Source: Clostridia bacterium (GTDB lineage: Bacteria; Bacillota; Clostridia; Oscillospirales; Acutalibacteraceae). Taken from it: a stretch of 35,937 nucleotides of DNA. The first letter of the stretch is position 1. Each line of letters starts with the position of its first letter. Positions 24,862-33,207 of the stretch are shown here, piece by piece. The notes beneath the pieces are model-generated. The model ran no database searches. It was not told the origin of the DNA and worked only from the letters and a program-made list of their open reading frames with translations. A program made the translations under genes and the position numbers. The stretch spans positions 1 to 35,937 of the forward strand of contig JAFSYP010000063.1 of NCBI GenBank assembly GCA_017449935.1, read 5' to 3'.

Positions 24862-25821
24862 TTATAATCGAATCGGCTTTTCCGCGCTGATCCTGCCGCT
24901 TTCCACATCCTTAAAAAATGTGGAATTGGCGGGTACGACAAATTTGATCGCGGACGGGATCAATTCCATTGTGCAGTCGTGGACGACCTCGCACTCACCG
25001 TCCACGTTGACAACGGCGGGCGCATCCGAATGGACCGTGATCTTCCTGCCGCGGACGAACTTCGTAACGTCCCAGCTCAGGTGTTCGCCGCGTTTATAGG
25101 CGCCGAGCAGCGTCAGGAGCTTCAGTCGACTGAACTGTTTACGCACGACGATGATGTCTAAAAGGCCGTCGTTCGGCATCGCCAACGGGCCGCCCATATA
25201 GCCGCCGCCGTACCAGCGGGAATTGCCGACGAAGCAAAAGATGACCTTTTCCTTCTGCGGCGGTTCGTCGTCCACGGAGATCGTGAACGTATTCTCAACC
25301 TTCTTCATGAGCGCCCACAGCGCGGACAGCGTGTACGCCATTTCCCCGCCGACCAGCGGCAGTTTTTTGAAATCGGCCTGCTTCTTGCACACCTCGGCGT
25401 CCATGCCCATCGAGCATTCGTTGATCGCGATCTTATCGCCGCAGCGGATCAGATCGAGCGGGATCGCCGTGCCGTTGACCTGCGCCTCCACATTTGCGAG
25501 CTGCTCGCGCGTGCCGAACAGGCGGATAAAATCGTTGCCGGAACCGAGCGGCAGCACGGCGACCTCGACGTTCTCCGCGCCGTATGCGCCGTTGACCACC
25601 TCAAACAGCGTTCCGTCGCCGCCGCAGGCATAGAACCGGATCTGCTCGCCGGACGCTGCGCGTTCCTTTACAAAGCGCTGGCCGTCGCCGCCGGCTGTGG
25701 TACAGTAGACCTCATAATCCAATCCGTTCTTTTTGCAGTATTCGTGGATCTGCGGCTGGATGCGCTGCGCGTCCCTGCCCTTTTTACCTGCCATCGGATT
25801 GACAACAAAAACATGCTTCAT
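24862..25821 (-). CDS. Diacylglycerol kinase-family lipid kinase (YegS/BmrU-like)
   Basis: This protein of about 319 residues has the DAGK catalytic fold: VNPMAGKKG at the N-terminus, the nucleotide loop CGGDGTLFEVVNG, LPLGSGNDFIRLFG, and the C-terminal beta domain with NDGLLDIIVV. It probably phosphorylates a lipid alcohol at the membrane surface; the precise lipid cannot be read. ATG 25821 gives the best spacing from AAGG; ATG 25824 and GTG 25830 are alternatives. It starts 10 bases after the methyltransferase stop, and the ribosome site overlaps that stop. Confidence 0.9.
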   Translation of the reverse strand: MKHVFVVNPMAGKKGRDAQRIQPQIHEYCKKNGLDYEVYCTTAGGDGQRFVKERAASGEQIRFYACGGDGTLFEVVNGAYGAENVEVAVLPLGSGNDFIRLFGTREQLANVEAQVNGTAIPLDLIRCGDKIAINECSMGMDAEVCKKQADFKKLPLVGGEMAYTLSALWALMKKVENTFTISVDDEPPQKEKVIFCFVGNSRWYGGGYMGGPLAMPNDGLLDIIVVRKQFSRLKLLTLLGAYKRGEHLSWDVTKFVRGRKITVHSDAPAVVNVDGECEVVHDCTMELIPSAIKFVVPANSTFFKDVESGRISAEKPIRL

Positions 25822-25831
25822 CATTTTCACC

Positions 25832-27044: not shown

Positions 27045-28301
27045 TTACTCGTTGGATGAAAGTCCGCGCTCGTCAAAAAGGAACGCCGTGCGCAACAGCA
27101 CTTCGATTCCTTTTTCGATCGTTTGCACATTCAGATTCTCCGCCGTGTCAAGTCGCGTGTGATAATACCTCGCCGGCGCATGGTCCATCGCGCAGAATGC
27201 CACAGACGGGACGCCGCCCTGCATCATGGCCGCGGCGTCAGTCGCGCCAAGGTCGATCGACAGCTTCGGCAGATCGAGTCCCGCGTCATACGACGCCTGA
27301 AGCATCAGAGCGACCGCAGTCTTATCGAGCGAAACGGTGCCGGTCATATCCTTGTGATACACGCCCATGAATTCCATATCACGCACGGTGTCGGTCGCCA
27401 CAAAAACCGTTTCGACGTCGTCAAATTTGTTGGCCTTTACAAACGCTTTCGCACCGCGAAGGCCGGACTCCTCGGAGCCCATGGAGACTGCCATGACCTC
27501 CGTATGCTCAAACTCGATGTTGTTGGTCGTCATAAACTGAAGCACGGCGATCGAAGAAAAGACGCCCGTCAGATCGTCGTTCGCGCCCTCGACGACCAGC
27601 TTAGGATCGTCGAACACAAAGCCGACGCACAGTCCGAGCACACAAACGCCCTCCGCGATCCGGAATGCCAGCTGCGCGCCGTCGGACAGCTTCAGCACGA
27701 CGGAAAGAATATCCAGCACAAGACAGACAGCAACACATCCGAGCGCCGTATAGATCGCGACGCGCAGCAGCTTGTATCCGCCCCAATGCGTGAAGCGCCA
27801 CTCGTACGCCGAATCCATGTGACCGCTGAAAATGATCCGACGCTTGACCTCGCCCTTCGGCTTTTTGGTCAGGATCACATTACTGGACTGCGCTTTTCTG
27901 AAAAACGGGTCCATGATCTGCTTGTAAAGCAGAAACTCCAGAACGATGTAAACAAGGATCAGAACGGTCAGAACAAGTGAACCGACCTGAAACGCACGTC
28001 CCAGATTCTGCGGTACGAAGCCTGCGGCGATAAACAGCGCGATCGCGATGCTTTCGATGACCGCGCTGAACCACGGCCATGCCATAAACGCGCGGGGCGA
28101 GAGTTTAAACGACTGCTTCTCCGCGGAATCGGCAAATTTAGCGCACGATTCGAGCACGTAATCCTGCGCTTTGTCCTCGTTCTCGGAACCCGCCGCGCGA
28201 GGTCCGATCGTTTTACAGACCTTCCGGATCTCACGAACGGTAAAGTTCGTGCTTTCACGGATCTTTGCAACGTGGTTTAAATCCAGCTCATTGAATTTCA
28301 T
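27045..28301 (-). CDS. Membrane-embedded M28-family zinc peptidase
   Basis: The 418-residue protein has M28 aminopeptidase ligands: His161 and Asp163 in FSGHMDSA, GANDDLTG with Asp242/243, the Glu277-Glu278 pair in GSEESGL, Asp304 and His381 in YHTRLDT. Unusually, two membrane hairpins are built in, at about 77-97 and 106-126 before the first ligand, and at 182-203 and 211-231 between the first and second ligand groups. Basic loops at 127-155 suggest the active site faces the cytoplasm. The ribosome site AGGAG is 12 bases from ATG 28301, a long spacing. It follows the SCP2-like gene by 74 bases. Confidence 0.85.
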   Translation of the reverse strand: MKFNELDLNHVAKIRESTNFTVREIRKVCKTIGPRAAGSENEDKAQDYVLESCAKFADSAEKQSFKLSPRAFMAWPWFSAVIESIAIALFIAAGFVPQNLGRAFQVGSLVLTVLILVYIVLEFLLYKQIMDPFFRKAQSSNVILTKKPKGEVKRRIIFSGHMDSAYEWRFTHWGGYKLLRVAIYTALGCVAVCLVLDILSVVLKLSDGAQLAFRIAEGVCVLGLCVGFVFDDPKLVVEGANDDLTGVFSSIAVLQFMTTNNIEFEHTEVMAVSMGSEESGLRGAKAFVKANKFDDVETVFVATDTVRDMEFMGVYHKDMTGTVSLDKTAVALMLQASYDAGLDLPKLSIDLGATDAAAMMQGGVPSVAFCAMDHAPARYYHTRLDTAENLNVQTIEKGIEVLLRTAFLFDERGLSSNE

Positions 28302-28332
28302 ATACGGTTTGAACTCCTATGGACAAATTCGC

Positions 28333-28361
28333 AGAGCCACGACACATGACGCCGCGGCTCT
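28333..28361 (-). terminator. Weak terminator-like hairpin after the five-gene operon
   Basis: On the minus strand AGAGCC...GGCTCT forms a stem of up to 12 pairs with several G-T wobbles and a 5-base loop. Only a short T-poor tail follows, so read-through into the M28 gene is likely. Confidence 0.45.
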
Positions 28362-28375
28362 GTTCCTTGATAGAA

Positions 28376-29182
28376 TTATTTTGCGAGTGCGCCGACTTCC
28401 AGCATGAATCCGCCGATCTGTCCGCCGAACTCGGGCGCGCCGTCCATGATCAGACGTCCGGCCTTCACGGCTTCGAGCATGTCGTCGGTATCGAGCAGGA
28501 TGCCCAGCGCGCTGTCAAGGTTATTGAAGCGCAGCGTGAAGAAGGTAAGCGCCTTCTTGTAATCGCCGCGGCCGGCCTTTGTCTTGCCTTCCTTGACGCG
28601 CATATGCGCCGAAACGCCCGGATAGCCTTCCACTGCCCAGCCGTACACACGGTCGGGGCTCTTCTTGGCCCAGTCGTGGATCGCGGGATGGCCGGCCTTG
28701 TTAAGCTGGCTGATGCCGGTGGAGAGCAGATAGAAGAAGCACTTAACCATAAGCTCCTTGGACGCTTCATCCTTCGGCGGCTCCGTTGCGGAAAGCAGCG
28801 AGGACATCTTCAGCAGCACGGACACAAACGCGATCAGAACGTCCATCTTGCCCACGCCCTTGATCTTGCGCGGGAGTGTCTTGGGATTCATCTTGCCCTT
28901 GAAAAAGCCGTTCATCGCTTCGATGGATTTGAAGCCGATCTCGACGTCGGGGTTCGTGTGGATGGTATTGAGCTTGACTGTCCACTCACCGTTCTTGATC
29001 CAGAAGCAGGTGCTTCTCTTTCCGCCCTTGGTCTCGGGATCGAGCGCGCTGACCTGGATCACGGCGTTCATGCCCTTGAATTTCTTCTTGAGTTCCGGAA
29101 CATCATTGGCGATAACCTTCATCAGCGGAAGCACCGCATTGAAGAAAATGATGCTGGAATAGACTTCTTCCTTCTTATGCAT
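28376..29182 (-). CDS. Tandem SCP2-like protein B
   Basis: The 268-residue protein appears to contain two sterol-carrier-protein-2-like units. Residues 38-128 carry the pattern strand (EWTVKL), NPDVEIGFKSIEAMNGFFKGK, then KIKGVGKMDVLIAFVSVLLKM. Residues 185-268 repeat it as ALTFFTLRFNNLDSALGILL, DDMLEAVKAGRLIMDGAPE, GGFMLEVGALA. SCP2 folds bind lipids or acyl groups in a hydrophobic tunnel, but the ligand here is unknown. ATG 29182 follows GGGGGAG at 8 bases. It is the last gene of the operon, 18 bases after the transketolase C subunit, and is a diverged paralogue of the first gene. Family assignment is by pattern only. Confidence 0.65.
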   Translation of the reverse strand: MHKKEEVYSSIIFFNAVLPLMKVIANDVPELKKKFKGMNAVIQVSALDPETKGGKRSTCFWIKNGEWTVKLNTIHTNPDVEIGFKSIEAMNGFFKGKMNPKTLPRKIKGVGKMDVLIAFVSVLLKMSSLLSATEPPKDEASKELMVKCFFYLLSTGISQLNKAGHPAIHDWAKKSPDRVYGWAVEGYPGVSAHMRVKEGKTKAGRGDYKKALTFFTLRFNNLDSALGILLDTDDMLEAVKAGRLIMDGAPEFGGQIGGFMLEVGALAK

Positions 29183-29200
29183 TACCGTCACTCCCCCTTC

Positions 29201-30211
29201 TTAAACCTCGTCGTCCCAGTTGTCGTCGTCGTCTCTGCGGACGCCGAGACTGTCGAACACGGCGTTGATGATACCGTTGGAATCAATGCCCAGAATAGAC
29301 ATGATGTCCTCGTGCAGACCGATGGGAGCGAACTTATCCGGAATGCCCAGACGCTTGAACCTGACGGGGATATCGCTCTCCGCAAGGACCTCCGCGACTG
29401 CGGAGCCGAGACCGCCGATTATGTTGTGATCTTCCGCGGTGATGATCTTGCCGGTCTCCTGCGCAGCCTTGAGGATGGCTTCCTTGTCGATGGGCTTGAT
29501 GGTATGCATGTTCAGCACGCGCACCTTGATGCCGTGTACGTTCTCCAGGAACATCGCTGCCTGCAGCGCCTGGAACGCACAGGAACCGGTCGCGATGACC
29601 GTCGCGTCGGAGCCTTCGTGCAGCTCCACCGCCTTGCCGATCTGATAACCGTAGTTCGCGTCGGAATACAGAACGCGGTCAAAGCCTCTGTTGATGCGGA
29701 TATACACCGGGCCCTTATGCGCATAGGCGGCGCGCACGGCGTTGGCCGTCTCCAGACCGTCAGCCGGACAGATCACGACCAGATTCGGCATAGAACGCGC
29801 CACAGCCAGGTCCACGATGGCATGGTGCGTCGAACCGGCCTGACCGAAGGACGTACCCGCGTGGGTGGCGATGATCTTGCAGTTGATATTCTGGTAGCAA
29901 ATATCCGTGTGCAGCTGGTCCGCGCAGCGCAGAGAAGCGAAAACGGAGAACGTCGAAAGGAAGGGCGTGCAGCCCGCCTTCGCCATACCGGCGGCGACGC
30001 CGAACATGTTCTGCTCGGCAATACCGACGTTGAAGAAACGATCCGGGAACTCCTTCTGGAAAATACCGATCTTTGTCGAGGTCGCAAGGTCGGCAGTCAG
30101 CGCGACGATCTCCGGATGCGATCTGCCGAGCTCAGCGAGCGTATTGCCGTAATACTCCGCAGTAGACATTGCGGTCGATTCCACAGCTGTATAAACAAAT
30201 CCGCCTGCCAT
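29201..30211 (-). CDS. Transketolase, C-terminal subunit
   Basis: This subunit of 336 residues carries the pyrimidine-binding and C-terminal domains of transketolase. It has ALTADLATSTK, the cofactor-activating glutamate in NVGIAEQNMFGVAAGMA, STFSVFASLRCADQLHTDI, the H/D-rich THAGTSFGQAGSTHHAIVDLA, and the C-terminal AEDHNIIGGLGSAVAEVL. ATG 30211 directly follows the TAA of the N subunit, with GAGG upstream, so the two are translationally coupled and must form a heteromer. The last ten residues, DDDDNWDDEV, are strikingly acidic. The sugar substrate is unknown. Confidence 0.92.
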   Translation of the reverse strand: MAGGFVYTAVESTAMSTAEYYGNTLAELGRSHPEIVALTADLATSTKIGIFQKEFPDRFFNVGIAEQNMFGVAAGMAKAGCTPFLSTFSVFASLRCADQLHTDICYQNINCKIIATHAGTSFGQAGSTHHAIVDLAVARSMPNLVVICPADGLETANAVRAAYAHKGPVYIRINRGFDRVLYSDANYGYQIGKAVELHEGSDATVIATGSCAFQALQAAMFLENVHGIKVRVLNMHTIKPIDKEAILKAAQETGKIITAEDHNIIGGLGSAVAEVLAESDIPVRFKRLGIPDKFAPIGLHEDIMSILGIDSNGIINAVFDSLGVRRDDDDNWDDEV

Positions 30212-31078
30212 TTATCTCGCCTCTCTTTCCACGCGTTCCACACGTTTCTTATAGTATTCGGCAAGGTCTTCCTTGCACTGTTTGTAGAGCGTCTCGTCAA
30301 TGGCGCCGTAGTGCCATTTATAATTGCCTTCCATCATCTTGATGCCGGCGCCCTTGACCGTATCGGCAAGGATCAGCACGGGATTGGTCGCGGTCAGCGC
30401 ATAGTCGATCGCTTCGCACAGCTCGCGGATGTTCTGGCCGTCCACCTTTTTGACCGTAAGGCCGAAGGCCGTCCATTTGTCGGCCAGAGGCTCCAGCTTC
30501 ATGACGTCCTCCGTATCGCCGTCGATCATCTTGTGGTTGCGGTCGACGATGGAGATGACATTGGTGAGGTTGTAATGGTTGATAGTCATGGCGGCTTCCC
30601 AGTTGGAGCCCTCGCCCAATTCGCCGTCGCCCATCAGGCAGAACGTCTTGTAGGACTTACCGAGCACTCTGGCCGCCAAGCCGGTGCCGGCAGCGATCGG
30701 CAGGCCGTGACCGAGCGAACCGGTGGAGGCGTCGACGCCGATAACCTTGTTGGAATCCAGATGGATGCCCATTTTGGAATTGGTGTGGTTGAAGGTCTTC
30801 AGCTGCTCCTTGTCGTTGAAGCCGAAGTCGCACAGCACAGGCGCATACGCAATGCCGGCATGGCCTTTGCTGAGGATGAAGCGGTCTCTGTCCGCCCAGT
30901 TGGGATCATCCTTGCGGATGTGCAGATACTTGTGGTACAGCACGGTAAAAATATCCATCGCGCTCATACCGCCGCCGATATGGCCGCTGCCCGCCCAGTA
31001 CGTCGTGTCCAGGCAGAGATTGCGCAGCTCATGCGCTTTCTTTTCCAGCGCGAGCCATTCGCTCTTTGTCAATGACAT
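30212..31078 (-). CDS. Transketolase, N-terminal (thiamine-diphosphate-binding) subunit
   Basis: The 288-residue subunit holds the diphosphate-binding domain: SGHIGGGMSAMDI at 31-43, SKGHA at 70-74, STGSLGHGLPIAAG at 118-131 and the thiamine motif GDGELGEGSNWEA at 150-162 with the distal asparagine in VDRNHKMIDG. Split transketolases are normal in several bacterial groups and are not frameshifts. ATG 31078 has AAGGGG at a long spacing. It begins 18 bases after the aminotransferase gene. This subunit works only together with the downstream C subunit. Confidence 0.93.
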   Translation of the reverse strand: MSLTKSEWLALEKKAHELRNLCLDTTYWAGSGHIGGGMSAMDIFTVLYHKYLHIRKDDPNWADRDRFILSKGHAGIAYAPVLCDFGFNDKEQLKTFNHTNSKMGIHLDSNKVIGVDASTGSLGHGLPIAAGTGLAARVLGKSYKTFCLMGDGELGEGSNWEAAMTINHYNLTNVISIVDRNHKMIDGDTEDVMKLEPLADKWTAFGLTVKKVDGQNIRELCEAIDYALTATNPVLILADTVKGAGIKMMEGNYKWHYGAIDETLYKQCKEDLAEYYKKRVERVEREAR

Positions 31079-31096
31079 TCTTTAATACACCCCTTC

Positions 31097-32359
31097 TTAT
31101 GCAAGCTCCGGATGATGCGCCTTGACCGCTCTGAAAGCGTCTTCTGCGATCTCTACGGTCGTCTTGATATCCTCGTCCGTCAGTGCGGCATTGATGAAAT
31201 GATTGTGGTGCGAAGCGAAGAAAACGCCTCTGGAAACGCACTCCGCGATCCATTCCTGATGCAGATACAAATCGTCGTCGTTCGCCACACGCAGATAGAA
31301 CAGCGAGGGCATACCGGAAACGACCAAATCGAAGCCGTTTTCTTTCGCGGCGATCTTCAGGCCGTTGATCAGCTTCGTGCCCAGCGTGTCAAACAGCTGC
31401 GGGGTGTTGAGCTTCTTCATCTTTTCGATATTCGCGATACACGCGGCGAACGGCACGGAGCTCATCCAGTAGCTGCCCGTCACATTCATGCCGCTGATGG
31501 CGCTCTTGAGGTGATCGCGGCCGCACAGCGCTGACATATTGTAGCCGTTGGCAAGCGCCTTGCAGAAGCAGATCATATCCGCCTTGAAGCCGAAGTAGTG
31601 GTCGGAACCTGCAAGGTCCAGACGGAAGCCGGCGCGCACGTCGTCGATGATCAGCTGGATATCCTCGTCGTCGCAGATCTTTCTGACCTTCGCCCAGAAA
31701 GCGCGCGTCATGATCGCGTTGTCGTGGAAGTTGCCGTGATCGTACGGCTGCGCAATAATGGCCGCGATCTCGCCCTTGTTCTCCTCGACGACTTTCTCAA
31801 GCGCGGGGATGTCGTCCCACGGGACGATGATGTTATTCCAGACTTCCTCGGGCAGAACGCCGCTGTAATCCTTCTTGGCCTGCCAGGGAGAAACGCCGTG
31901 ATAATAGCCCTTGAAGAAGATGATCTTCTTGCGCTTGGTATACGCTCTGGCAGTCATGGCGGCGATCTGCGTGGTGTCGTTGCCGTTCTTGGCAAAATAG
32001 ACCCAGTCCGCCGAGGCGACGGTGTCGACAAGAAGCTCGGCACAGTCGACCATAACGCTGCCGGGAGACGTGGTGCAGTTGCCCTTCTTGAGCTGGGCGA
32101 GTGCGGCGGCGTCCACGTCGGGATCGTTATAGCCGAGGACATTGGGGCCGTACGCACACATATAGTCGATGTATTTGTTGCCGTCCACGTCCCAGAAATA
32201 TGTACCCTGGGCGCGTTCGGAGAACATCGGCCACTTGCTGACCGGGATAAACAGACCTTCCGCCGGGCCGAGGTGACCGTAAACGCCGGACGGAATCACT
32301 TTCGTTGCGCGCGCAAAAAGCGCACGGCTTTTTTCATGCGTATATTCAGGATAAGACAT
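31097..32359 (-). CDS. Class III aminotransferase, glutamate-1-semialdehyde-aminotransferase-like
   Basis: This is a PLP enzyme of 420 residues. It has DVDGNKYIDYMCAYGPNVLGY, YYHG at 152-155, the cofactor aspartate at 239 in IIDDVRAGFRLD, and the Schiff-base lysine at 267 in CFCKALANGY. It resembles HemL overall, but the usual NSGTEA phosphate-loop motif reads KNGNDT at 124-129, DEVMTGFR reads DDVRAGFR, and the EP motif reads AQPYDHGN. A different substrate from HemL is likely. No heme genes are nearby. ATG 32359 follows AAGGAGG. It lies 13 bases after SCP2-like A and just before the transketolase genes. Confidence 0.88.
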   Translation of the reverse strand: MSYPEYTHEKSRALFARATKVIPSGVYGHLGPAEGLFIPVSKWPMFSERAQGTYFWDVDGNKYIDYMCAYGPNVLGYNDPDVDAAALAQLKKGNCTTSPGSVMVDCAELLVDTVASADWVYFAKNGNDTTQIAAMTARAYTKRKKIIFFKGYYHGVSPWQAKKDYSGVLPEEVWNNIIVPWDDIPALEKVVEENKGEIAAIIAQPYDHGNFHDNAIMTRAFWAKVRKICDDEDIQLIIDDVRAGFRLDLAGSDHYFGFKADMICFCKALANGYNMSALCGRDHLKSAISGMNVTGSYWMSSVPFAACIANIEKMKKLNTPQLFDTLGTKLINGLKIAAKENGFDLVVSGMPSLFYLRVANDDDLYLHQEWIAECVSRGVFFASHHNHFINAALTDEDIKTTVEIAEDAFRAVKAHHPELA

Positions 32360-32372
32360 TCCGCAACCTCCT

Positions 32373-33131
32373 TTATGCCAGATACAGAGCAACTCTGTCG
32401 AGAATTCTGTTCATGTTGTCGAGCATGGAGATCATGCCCTTCATGGTGATCGAACCGTTGCCGATGCAGGCAAGCGAATTGACCTTGTCGTTGAACAGGT
32501 CGTTCGCCAGCTGCATGGAGCCGAATTCCATCACGGATCTGGGAGTACCTTCGCAGTCCTTCAAAGTGGTCAGCACATGATCCTTCGCACGGATCACGGC
32601 CTTCGGACCGTTCTTGATGGACATCAGGATATCGCCGTCTTCGATATTCTGCGCGCTGAACGTGCTGATCGGATCGTGATTGCCGAGCTGTGAGATCGCG
32701 CAGGTCACGACGTAGAACGTCAGCGTCGTGTTCAGATCGAAGAACGCGGGATCCTTCATCGCTTCCTCGGAAGGACGCATCACTTCACTGAGCCGGTCGG
32801 TCAACGGCACGAACGTCTTCAGCAAAAAGCCGATCTTGGAAAAGCCCTTTGTCGGAACAGGCGTCACGGTGCCGTCGATCAGCCCGTTGAATTTTTCGGG
32901 CGAAGCAAACGGCAGACGGATGTCGCAGTCCGCGCAGCCTTCCGTCAGAAGGCAGTTGCCGTCCTCAAAGCTGAGCGTCGCCTTGGGGCCGTCCTTGACG
33001 TCGAAGCCGATGGACACGGGTTTGGTACCGCTCAAGATGTTCTTGGCCTGTTCGTCCAGCTTGCAGAGATTTTCCAGCGCGCCGAGGACCGCGAACATAT
33101 TGATGTACGCTAAAGTTTTTGCATCTGTCAA
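32373..33131 (-). CDS. Tandem SCP2-like protein A
   Basis: The start is a TTG at 33131, chosen because GGAGGAGGA lies 6 bases upstream; longer in-frame starts bury this site and the promoter. The 252-residue product seems to hold two SCP2-like units. Residues 35-118 have GPKATLSF, CDIRLPFASPEKFNGLIDG and GFSKIGFLLKTFVPLTDRL. Residues 165-252 have GPKAVIRA, MEFGSMQLANDLFNDKVNS, then GNGSITMKGMISMLDNMNRI. Three cysteines cluster at 60-69. It is the first gene of the operon and a diverged paralogue of the last one. Function is unknown; lipid or hydrophobic-metabolite binding is inferred. Confidence 0.62.
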   Translation of the reverse strand: MTDAKTLAYINMFAVLGALENLCKLDEQAKNILSGTKPVSIGFDVKDGPKATLSFEDGNCLLTEGCADCDIRLPFASPEKFNGLIDGTVTPVPTKGFSKIGFLLKTFVPLTDRLSEVMRPSEEAMKDPAFFDLNTTLTFYVVTCAISQLGNHDPISTFSAQNIEDGDILMSIKNGPKAVIRAKDHVLTTLKDCEGTPRSVMEFGSMQLANDLFNDKVNSLACIGNGSITMKGMISMLDNMNRILDRVALYLA

Positions 33132-33178: not shown

Positions 33179-33207
33179 AATATAGCACATGCAAAATAAA
33201 ATTTCAA
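33179..33207 (-). promoter_or_regulatory. Candidate promoter for the SCP2/aminotransferase/transketolase operon
   Basis: On the minus strand TTGAAA (33202-33207) and TATATT (33179-33184) are separated by 17 bases, with TGC before the -10 box. The leader would be about 40 bases. The region is AT-rich and non-coding. Confidence 0.75.

What the first reader, a model, noticed from the sequence alone, without database searches (positions are those of the whole stretch)
28376..33131. Five-gene operon: two tandem-SCP2 proteins around an unusual aminotransferase and a split transketolase
Five co-directional genes with gaps of 0-18 bases share one promoter (33179-33207). The order is SCP2-like A, HemL-like aminotransferase, transketolase N, transketolase C, SCP2-like B. 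Seen directly: the order, spacing, ribosome sites and catalytic motifs. Family knowledge: split transketolases and dedicated aminotransferases occur together in specialised sugar or amino-sugar pathways, and SCP2 folds bind hydrophobic ligands. Inference: the operon makes or breaks down an amino-ketose-like or amino-lipid compound, with two-carbon transfer by the transketolase and the SCP2-like pair holding a hydrophobic substrate or product. No isomerase, transporter or regulator is present, so the pathway probably draws on central metabolites. I know of no described system with exactly this set.
Basis: partly seen in the sequence, partly recalled or inferred. Interest (0 to 1): 0.85.

Follow-up and report, generated by a model that had tools for sequence, protein, structure and literature searches.

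The report
Transketolase-aminotransferase operon with lipid carriers
A conserved five-gene unit in gut- and rumen-type Clostridia couples a carbon-joining enzyme and an amine-transferring enzyme, each travelling with its own lipid-carrier-like protein, and may handle long-chain amino alcohols (the backbone of sphingolipids) by an undescribed route; no biochemistry has been done yet.

Summary
Five minus-strand genes (SCP2A, aminotransferase AT, TKN, TKC, SCP2B) lie behind one promoter. All five are collinear in 72 of 80 fetched loci; the other 8 are cut by a contig end. Three genomes of two other families of the phylum also have all five. The unit can split into two modules, SCP2A-AT and TKN-TKC-SCP2B, so each enzyme tends to travel with its own SCP2-like protein. 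AT is not HemL: it groups with FumI (38% identity), which deaminates a sphinganine-like long-chain amino alcohol. The transketolase keeps its ThDP and donor-side residues, but the acceptor-site Arg/Asp pair (human R101/D424) is N/A in every close-family row, and the phosphate-site Arg (R318) is gone there too; 17 of 18 other transketolase-type matches examined in the sampled genomes keep the Asp. In E. coli transketolase that pair is a salt bridge, and changing the Asp widens the aldehydes accepted. Best reading: ketol transfer to (or from) a long-chain aldehyde plus transamination of the ketodiol, i.e. sphingoid-like 2-amino-1,3-diol metabolism without serine palmitoyltransferase. Substrate, chain length and direction are inferred.

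The parts
33179..33207 (-). sigma-70/A type promoter-like site (TTGAAA, 17 nt, TATATT, TG before the second hexamer)
   Evidence: 10 of 12 matches; 6 sites found in the stretch, 2.7 on average in shuffles
32373..33131 (-). SCP2A: SCP2-like protein of two related halves, partner of AT
   Evidence: 18 bits, under cut-off; 21 of 40 family members match PF02036 at E<=0.01
31097..32359 (-). AT: class III PLP aminotransferase on the FumI (aminopentol aminotransferase) side of the tree; presumed PLP lysine K267, invariant in the family alignment
30212..31078 (-). TKN: ThDP-binding half of a split transketolase; acceptor-site Arg (human R101, E. coli R91) replaced by Asn
29201..30211 (-). TKC: pyrimidine-binding half of the split transketolase; human R318 to Ala, E423 to Gln, D424 to Ala (E. 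coli R358, E468, D469)
28376..29191 (-). SCP2B: second SCP2-like protein, partner of the transketolase (start GTG 29191, or ATG 29182)
   Evidence: G856 orthologue 33.6 bits to PF02036; a 58.1-bit SCP2 match beside a related transketolase in G608; 2 of 40 members match at E<=0.01

Best explanation
A two-step pathway for a long-chain, sphingoid-like amino alcohol. The split transketolase moves a two-carbon ketol unit between a polar donor (hydroxypyruvate or a ketose phosphate) and a long-chain aliphatic aldehyde, giving a 1,3-dihydroxy-2-alkanone. The FumI-type aminotransferase interconverts that 2-ketone and the 2-amine, giving a 2-amino-1,3-diol, which has the head group of sphinganine. SCP2B holds the hydrophobic chain for the transketolase and SCP2A for the aminotransferase. 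Shown: gene order, module pairing, residue changes, family placement. Inferred: hydrophobic substrate, chain length, reaction order, lipid binding by the SCP2-like proteins, and the biosynthetic direction (slightly preferred over breakdown).
For: (1) AT's closest solved relative is FumI (297 against 167 bits for the best GSAM; 38.3% identity against 31.8 and 29.0% for two GSAM fragments). By PMC2933618 (passages) FumI moves the 2-amino group of hydrolysed fumonisin B1, a long-chain 2-amino-3-hydroxy compound, to pyruvate. AT and FumI share MCAYGPN-LGY, KNG-D-T, DDVR-GFR and HN-F motifs that the GSAM fragments lack; plasmid homologues share most of them; a 99/97 branch separates them from GSAM. 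(2) The transketolase keeps donor-side and cofactor residues, but R101 is N in 78 of 78 rows, D424 is A in 77 of 77, and R318 is A or S in 77 of 77; four more distant loci agree at 101 and 424. In 19 genomes, 30 of 44 TKC matches were examined: all 12 SCP2-linked ones lack the Asp, 17 of the 18 others keep it. (3) The equivalent E. coli residues are R91 and D469 (alignment). PMC5073344 (abstract and passages): these form a salt bridge in the active site; D469T gave activity on aromatic aldehydes that the wild type lacks; it is part of a series moved from phosphorylated to non-polar aliphatic and aromatic acceptors; ketodiols made by transketolase can be directed to aminodiols. (4) Module pairing: SCP2A-AT and TKN-TKC-SCP2B lie on different contigs in G637 and G032. 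(5) No alpha-oxoamine synthase match (TIGR01822 as a stand-in for SPT/KBL/BioF, E<=1e-20) in 24 of 24 SCP2A-bearing genomes tested from the window's family, some of them incomplete.
Against: No source of the long-chain aldehyde was found: LuxC has only weak hits in 3 of 41 genomes, and DUF2229 (a domain of the plasmalogen enzyme, as recalled) is absent from G000 and is in 11 of 24 SCP2A-bearing genomes of the family against 8 of 9 without. No sphingolipid gene was recognised in the neighbourhoods, though none was sought by profile except TIGR01822. Three of 15 genomes with SCP2A-AT (G094, G416, G694) have no TKC of this type by score. Three SCP2-linked copies (G637, G032, G608) keep R318. S345, H416 and R474 of the phosphate site stay in 77 of 77, so phosphorylated substrates are not excluded. 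FumI is only 38% identical, the order of groups inside its side of the tree is weak (80/57), and substrates of its other relatives are unknown to me.
Confidence: 0.43

Rival explanations
1. Same chemistry run backwards: breakdown of dietary or host sphingoid bases. AT removes the amine, the transketolase splits off the two-carbon unit onto a sugar phosphate and releases a fatty aldehyde for oxidation.
For: Both reactions are reversible in principle (recalled); FumI acts in a catabolic pathway and five plasmid relatives sit beside TetR regulators, four of them also beside ABC transporter genes; in G694 the SCP2A-AT pair follows an amino acid permease; many of the fetched loci bear rumen or gut sample names.
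Against: In 80 loci no neighbour cluster outside the five occurs in more than 19 (simple ORF caller, most clusters not identified by profile), so no dedicated transporter or regulator is regularly linked; SCP2A is kept in 11 of 11 genomes of the window's genus, which suits a standing function.
Confidence: 0.22
2. 1-Deoxy version: the transketolase works like DXS or an acyloin synthase with pyruvate as donor, giving a 3-hydroxy-2-ketone and, after AT, a 1-deoxysphinganine-like 2-amino-3-alkanol, the head group of hydrolysed fumonisin itself.
For: TKC also scores well against dxs (223 bits, against 258 for the best transketolase model); FumI's own substrate is a 2-amino-3-hydroxy chain without a 1-hydroxyl (name).
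Against: TKN matches transketolase far better than dxs (231 against 44 bits), and H37, H77, H110 and H258, which line the ketol site (recalled), are kept in 78 of 78 rows.
Confidence: 0.1
3. A polar amino-sugar or amino-ketose pathway: two-carbon extension of a small aldehyde and transamination, with the SCP2-like proteins only as scaffolds.
For: Transketolases normally use sugars; S345, H416 and R474 of the phosphate site remain in 77 of 77 rows; three SCP2-linked copies keep R318; SCP2 folds also occur where they bind no lipid (recalled).
Against: Changes at R101, D424 and R318; aminotransferase on the FumI side; an SCP2-like partner for each enzyme; sugar-type neighbours are sporadic (aldolase-like in 15, FGGY-like kinase in 6 of 80 loci; names are my reading).
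Confidence: 0.16

Closest known systems
FumI, aminopentol aminotransferase (PDB 6hbs/6hbv; fumonisin degradation, Sphingopyxis)
   Same: Same side of the class III aminotransferase tree, shared motifs, best solved match
   Different: 38% identity; FumI serves a catabolic pathway; here AT is tied to an SCP2-like protein and usually to a transketolase
Split-chain transketolase of Carboxydothermus hydrogenoformans (PDB 6yak/6yaj)
   Same: Same split architecture, best solved match of both halves
   Different: It keeps R101, R318, E423 and D424
Engineered E. coli transketolase (D469 variants; PMC5073344)
   Same: The same Asp is changed, and ketodiols from transketolase can lead to aminodiols
   Different: Laboratory system with short or aromatic aldehydes; R91 is kept there; no SCP2 partner
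PigD/PigE of prodigiosin biosynthesis (PMC6667630, passages)
   Same: A ThDP enzyme followed by an aminotransferase on a hydrophobic aldehyde
   Different: PigD adds pyruvate to 2-octenal; a different ThDP family as recalled; no SCP2 in the passages seen
Serine palmitoyltransferase route to sphingoid bases
   Same: Would reach the same kind of product
   Different: Uses an alpha-oxoamine synthase; no TIGR01822 match in 24 SCP2A-bearing genomes of the window's family

Membership tests
Transketolase (split) | ThDP/Mg and donor-site residues (D155, N185, H37, H77, H110, H258; E366, F389; human numbering, roles recalled) | tested here: met
   Kept in 78 of 78 (TKN) and 77 of 77 (TKC) rows
Transketolase (split) | Canonical acceptor/phosphate residues R101, R318, D424 | tested here: not met
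   N in 78 of 78; A or S in 77 of 77; A in 77 of 77. So not filed as a pentose-phosphate transketolase. R318 is kept in three less similar SCP2-linked copies
FumI-type aminotransferase group | Closer to FumI than to GSAM by score and tree | tested here: met
   297 against 167 bits; 99/97 branch; order inside weak, 80/57
FumI-type aminotransferase group | Activity on long-chain 2-amino-3-hydroxy compounds | not testable with these tools
   Needs enzyme assay
HemL (glutamate-1-semialdehyde aminomutase) | Score above the curated NCBIfam hemL cut-off | tested here: not met
   202.3 against 527.3 bits
SCP2 domain | Profile match above Pfam's cut-off | tested here: inconclusive
   Window SCP2A 18 bits, SCP2B none; G856 orthologues 28.0 and 33.6 as whole proteins but 19.5 and 15.3 as single stretches; SCP2A stretches pass in G637 and G032; at E<=0.01 21 of 40 SCP2A and 2 of 40 SCP2B members match
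SCP2 domain | Hydrophobic ligand cavity | not testable with these tools
   Structure prediction switched off
Canonical sphingoid base synthesis | Serine palmitoyltransferase or another alpha-oxoamine synthase in the genome | tested here: not met
   TIGR01822 as stand-in, E<=1e-20: 0 of 24 SCP2A-bearing genomes of the window's family, 3 of 8 outside it; incomplete genomes included

The most novel reading that the evidence does not exclude
Clostridia make sphingoid bases without serine palmitoyltransferase: a specialised transketolase condenses a two-carbon ketol unit with a fatty aldehyde and a FumI-type aminotransferase aminates the ketodiol, each enzyme working on substrate held by its own SCP2-like protein. 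This would be a second, convergent origin of the sphingolipid backbone and an unrecognised sphingoid source among gut and rumen bacteria.
Probability: 0.22. Interest if true: 0.93.

Novelty: new variant of a known kind. Interest (0 to 1): 0.73.

Why it matters
[quoted passage not shown] An operon that could make or break the same backbone by transketolase and aminotransferase chemistry, in gut- and rumen-type Clostridia whose sampled genomes show no alpha-oxoamine synthase match, would change which gut bacteria are looked at for these lipids. It would also give biocatalysis a natural transketolase-aminotransferase pair with a natural change at the very residue engineers altered. The idea is testable at once with five cloned genes and LC-MS.

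Tried and rejected
HemL/haem role: rejected on score and motifs. Pentose phosphate role: disfavoured, a second split transketolase with R101, R318 and D424 is in the genome. Extra pathway genes: among 80 loci the most frequent other clusters are SecA-like (19), an aldolase-like protein (15), a mixed cluster of long frames on the other strand (15), ABC-type (14), then two at 11; SDR (7), FGGY-like kinase (6) and MFS-like transporter (6) are sporadic; these names are my reading of the sequences, not profile results. Aldehyde source by LuxC or by plasmalogen breakdown (DUF2229; idea prompted by passages of the review PMC10191378): no support. SCP2 relatives among solved structures by sequence: none found. 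The unit on plasmids: SCP2A no match; TKC matches all below 60% identity. Six of the 326 plasmid records with an AT match were read; none shows a family SCP2A/SCP2B match or an annotated transketolase, one has an alpha-ketoacid dehydrogenase that weakly matches the TK profiles. Literature for the combination: the listings of searches showed nothing that describes it; one search gave the PigD/PigE lead and search 67 nothing of use.
Full report
Observation. The five genes, their order, strand and spacing are as described: SCP2A 33131-32373, AT 32359-31097, TKN 31078-30212, TKC 30211-29201, SCP2B 29191-28376, gaps 13, 18, 0 and 9 (18 if SCP2B starts at the ATG at 29182, as the family consensus suggests), with a promoter-like site at 33207-33179. 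Pfam gives Aminotran_3 for AT and transketolase domains for TKN and TKC. The SCP2 label is weak in the window (SCP2A 18 bits against 21.3; SCP2B nothing). It rests on relatives: whole-protein scores of 28.0 and 33.6 in G856 (its single stretches reach only 19.5 and 15.3), passing stretches of SCP2A in G637 and G032 and a 58.1-bit SCP2 match beside a related transketolase in G608, similarity of the two families (probability 94.9) and of SCP2A's two halves (probability 91). For SCP2B a tandem structure is not shown.

Conservation. A scan of genome contigs with AT found 304 relatives; the best 80 were kept (AT identity 68-96%), with Clostridia-type names, most of them MAGs. In 72 of these 80 all five genes are present in order; the other 8 run into a contig end. 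The remaining 224 were not seen. No other gene cluster occurs in more than 19 of the 80 loci. In the sample of relatives SCP2A is in 26 of 98 genomes: 11 of 11 in the window's genus (itself included), 14 of 49 others of its family, 1 of 38 others of its order; AT lies beside it in all 26. In the class sample it is in 3 of 391. In the phylum sample AT scores above 450 bits in 7 of 398 genomes; in all 7 an SCP2A gene is next to it, whereas the 6 other listed matches (222-235 bits) have none in the short loci read. G636, G777 (one family) and G856 (another) have all five genes; G608 has four up to the contig end. The phylum is not named by the tools; the record names suggest Bacillota.

Two modules. 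G694, G416 and G094 carry only SCP2A-AT at that place. In G637 and G032 SCP2A-AT lies on one contig and TKN-TKC-SCP2B on another. G608 has a second TKN-TKC with an SCP2 neighbour. So the unit is best seen as two enzyme-plus-SCP2 pairs, usually joined. Of 15 genomes with SCP2A-AT searched for TKC, 12 have a match above 400 bits and 3 (G094, G416, G694) do not; of 4 genomes without SCP2A-AT none has one.

Aminotransferase. The best solved relative is FumI at 297 bits, against 167 for the best GSAM; identities are 38.3% to FumI and 31.8 and 29.0% to two GSAM fragments. FumI transfers the 2-amino group of hydrolysed fumonisin B1 to pyruvate (PMC2933618, passages). In a tree of 34 rows a 99/97 branch puts the SCP2-linked enzymes, FumI and six plasmid homologues on one side and GSAM plus six other enzymes of the phylum on the other; the order inside is weakly supported (80/57) and one row (L141) is very long. 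By curated models it is neither hemL (202 against 527 bits) nor GntE (217 against 525).

Transketolase. Human numbering is read from the printed alignments; the roles of residues are recalled except where cited. Kept in all rows: H37, K75, H77, H110, D155, N185, K244, H258 (78 of 78) and S345, E366, F389, F392, H416, R474 (77 of 77). Changed: R101 to N (78 of 78), E423 to Q and D424 to A (77 of 77), R318 to A (66) or S (11). Four more distant loci show N and A at 101 and 424, with G at 318 in G636 and G777. In 19 genomes 44 TKC matches were listed and 30 examined. The 12 SCP2-linked ones (same contig within about 5 kb of SCP2A, or beside an SCP2-type gene) all lack Asp at 424 (A in 10, S in 1, G in 1); R318 remains in the three least similar and is S, A, G or T in the others. 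Of the 18 other matches 17 keep Asp. The equivalents in E. coli TktA are R91, R358, E468 and D469. There R91 and D469 form a salt bridge; D469T gave activity on aromatic aldehydes that the wild type lacks and belongs to a series moved from phosphorylated to non-polar aliphatic and aromatic acceptors; transketolase ketodiols can be directed to aminodiols (PMC5073344, abstract and passages). That D469 changes also favour short aliphatic aldehydes is recalled. In this family both partners of the salt bridge are gone together.

Mechanism. A ketol-transferring enzyme whose acceptor site has lost charged sugar-binding residues, an aminotransferase related to one that acts on a sphinganine-like amino alcohol, and two SCP2-like proteins, one per enzyme, point to a long-chain aldehyde, a ketodiol and a 2-amino-1,3-diol. 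Direction is open. I lean to synthesis because no uptake or regulatory gene is regularly linked, but the catabolic role of FumI, the regulators and transporters beside its plasmid relatives and the permease beside the pair in G694 speak for breakdown. No alpha-oxoamine synthase match (TIGR01822, E<=1e-20) was found in the 24 SCP2A-bearing genomes tested from the window's family; 3 of 8 outside it have one. The aldehyde source is not found, which is the main gap. The phosphate-site residues S345, H416 and R474 that remain leave a phosphorylated substrate possible.

Known or new. The listings of searches of the paper library showed nothing describing this set; most subscription papers are not held. 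[quoted passage not shown] PigD/PigE (PMC6667630, passages) is the closest natural logic I found: a ThDP enzyme then an aminotransferase on a hydrophobic aldehyde. I file the unit as a new variant of that kind of chemistry; if the product proves to be a sphingoid base, the pathway would be new in kind.

Noticed in passing
window 24862-25830 (-): YegS/diacylglycerol kinase-like gene (PF00781, PF19279) about 2.5 kb downstream on the same strand, after rlmL; this superfamily includes sphingosine kinases (recalled), but a cluster with it was seen in only 4 of 80 loci.
   Followed up: partly
window 27045-28301 (-): M28-type peptidase with hydrophobic stretches directly downstream of the operon; its cluster is in 8 of 80 loci, mostly close relatives.
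   Followed up: partly
window 28319-31075 (+): A 918-aa open frame antisense to SCP2B, TKC and TKN; probably a codon-composition shadow. Long antisense frames also hid true genes in my simple ORF calls of related loci.
   Followed up: no
L130:10474-11826 (-): Amino acid permease directly upstream of the SCP2A-AT pair in the 6.4 Mb genome G694, which has no TKC match of this type.
   Followed up: partly
L131:4624-6054, L132:5434-6873: MurT-like ligase upstream of SCP2A on the same strand in both f117 genomes.
   Followed up: no
G856, G608, G637: These genomes hold 6, 8 and 6 SCP2 matches at E<=0.1, against 0 or 1 in the seven genomes of the window's family searched; their partners were not examined.
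   Followed up: no
L128:254-841; L129:10771-11169: A SpoVT-like regulator precedes the operon in G636; a similar-looking sequence does so in G777 (my reading).
   Followed up: no
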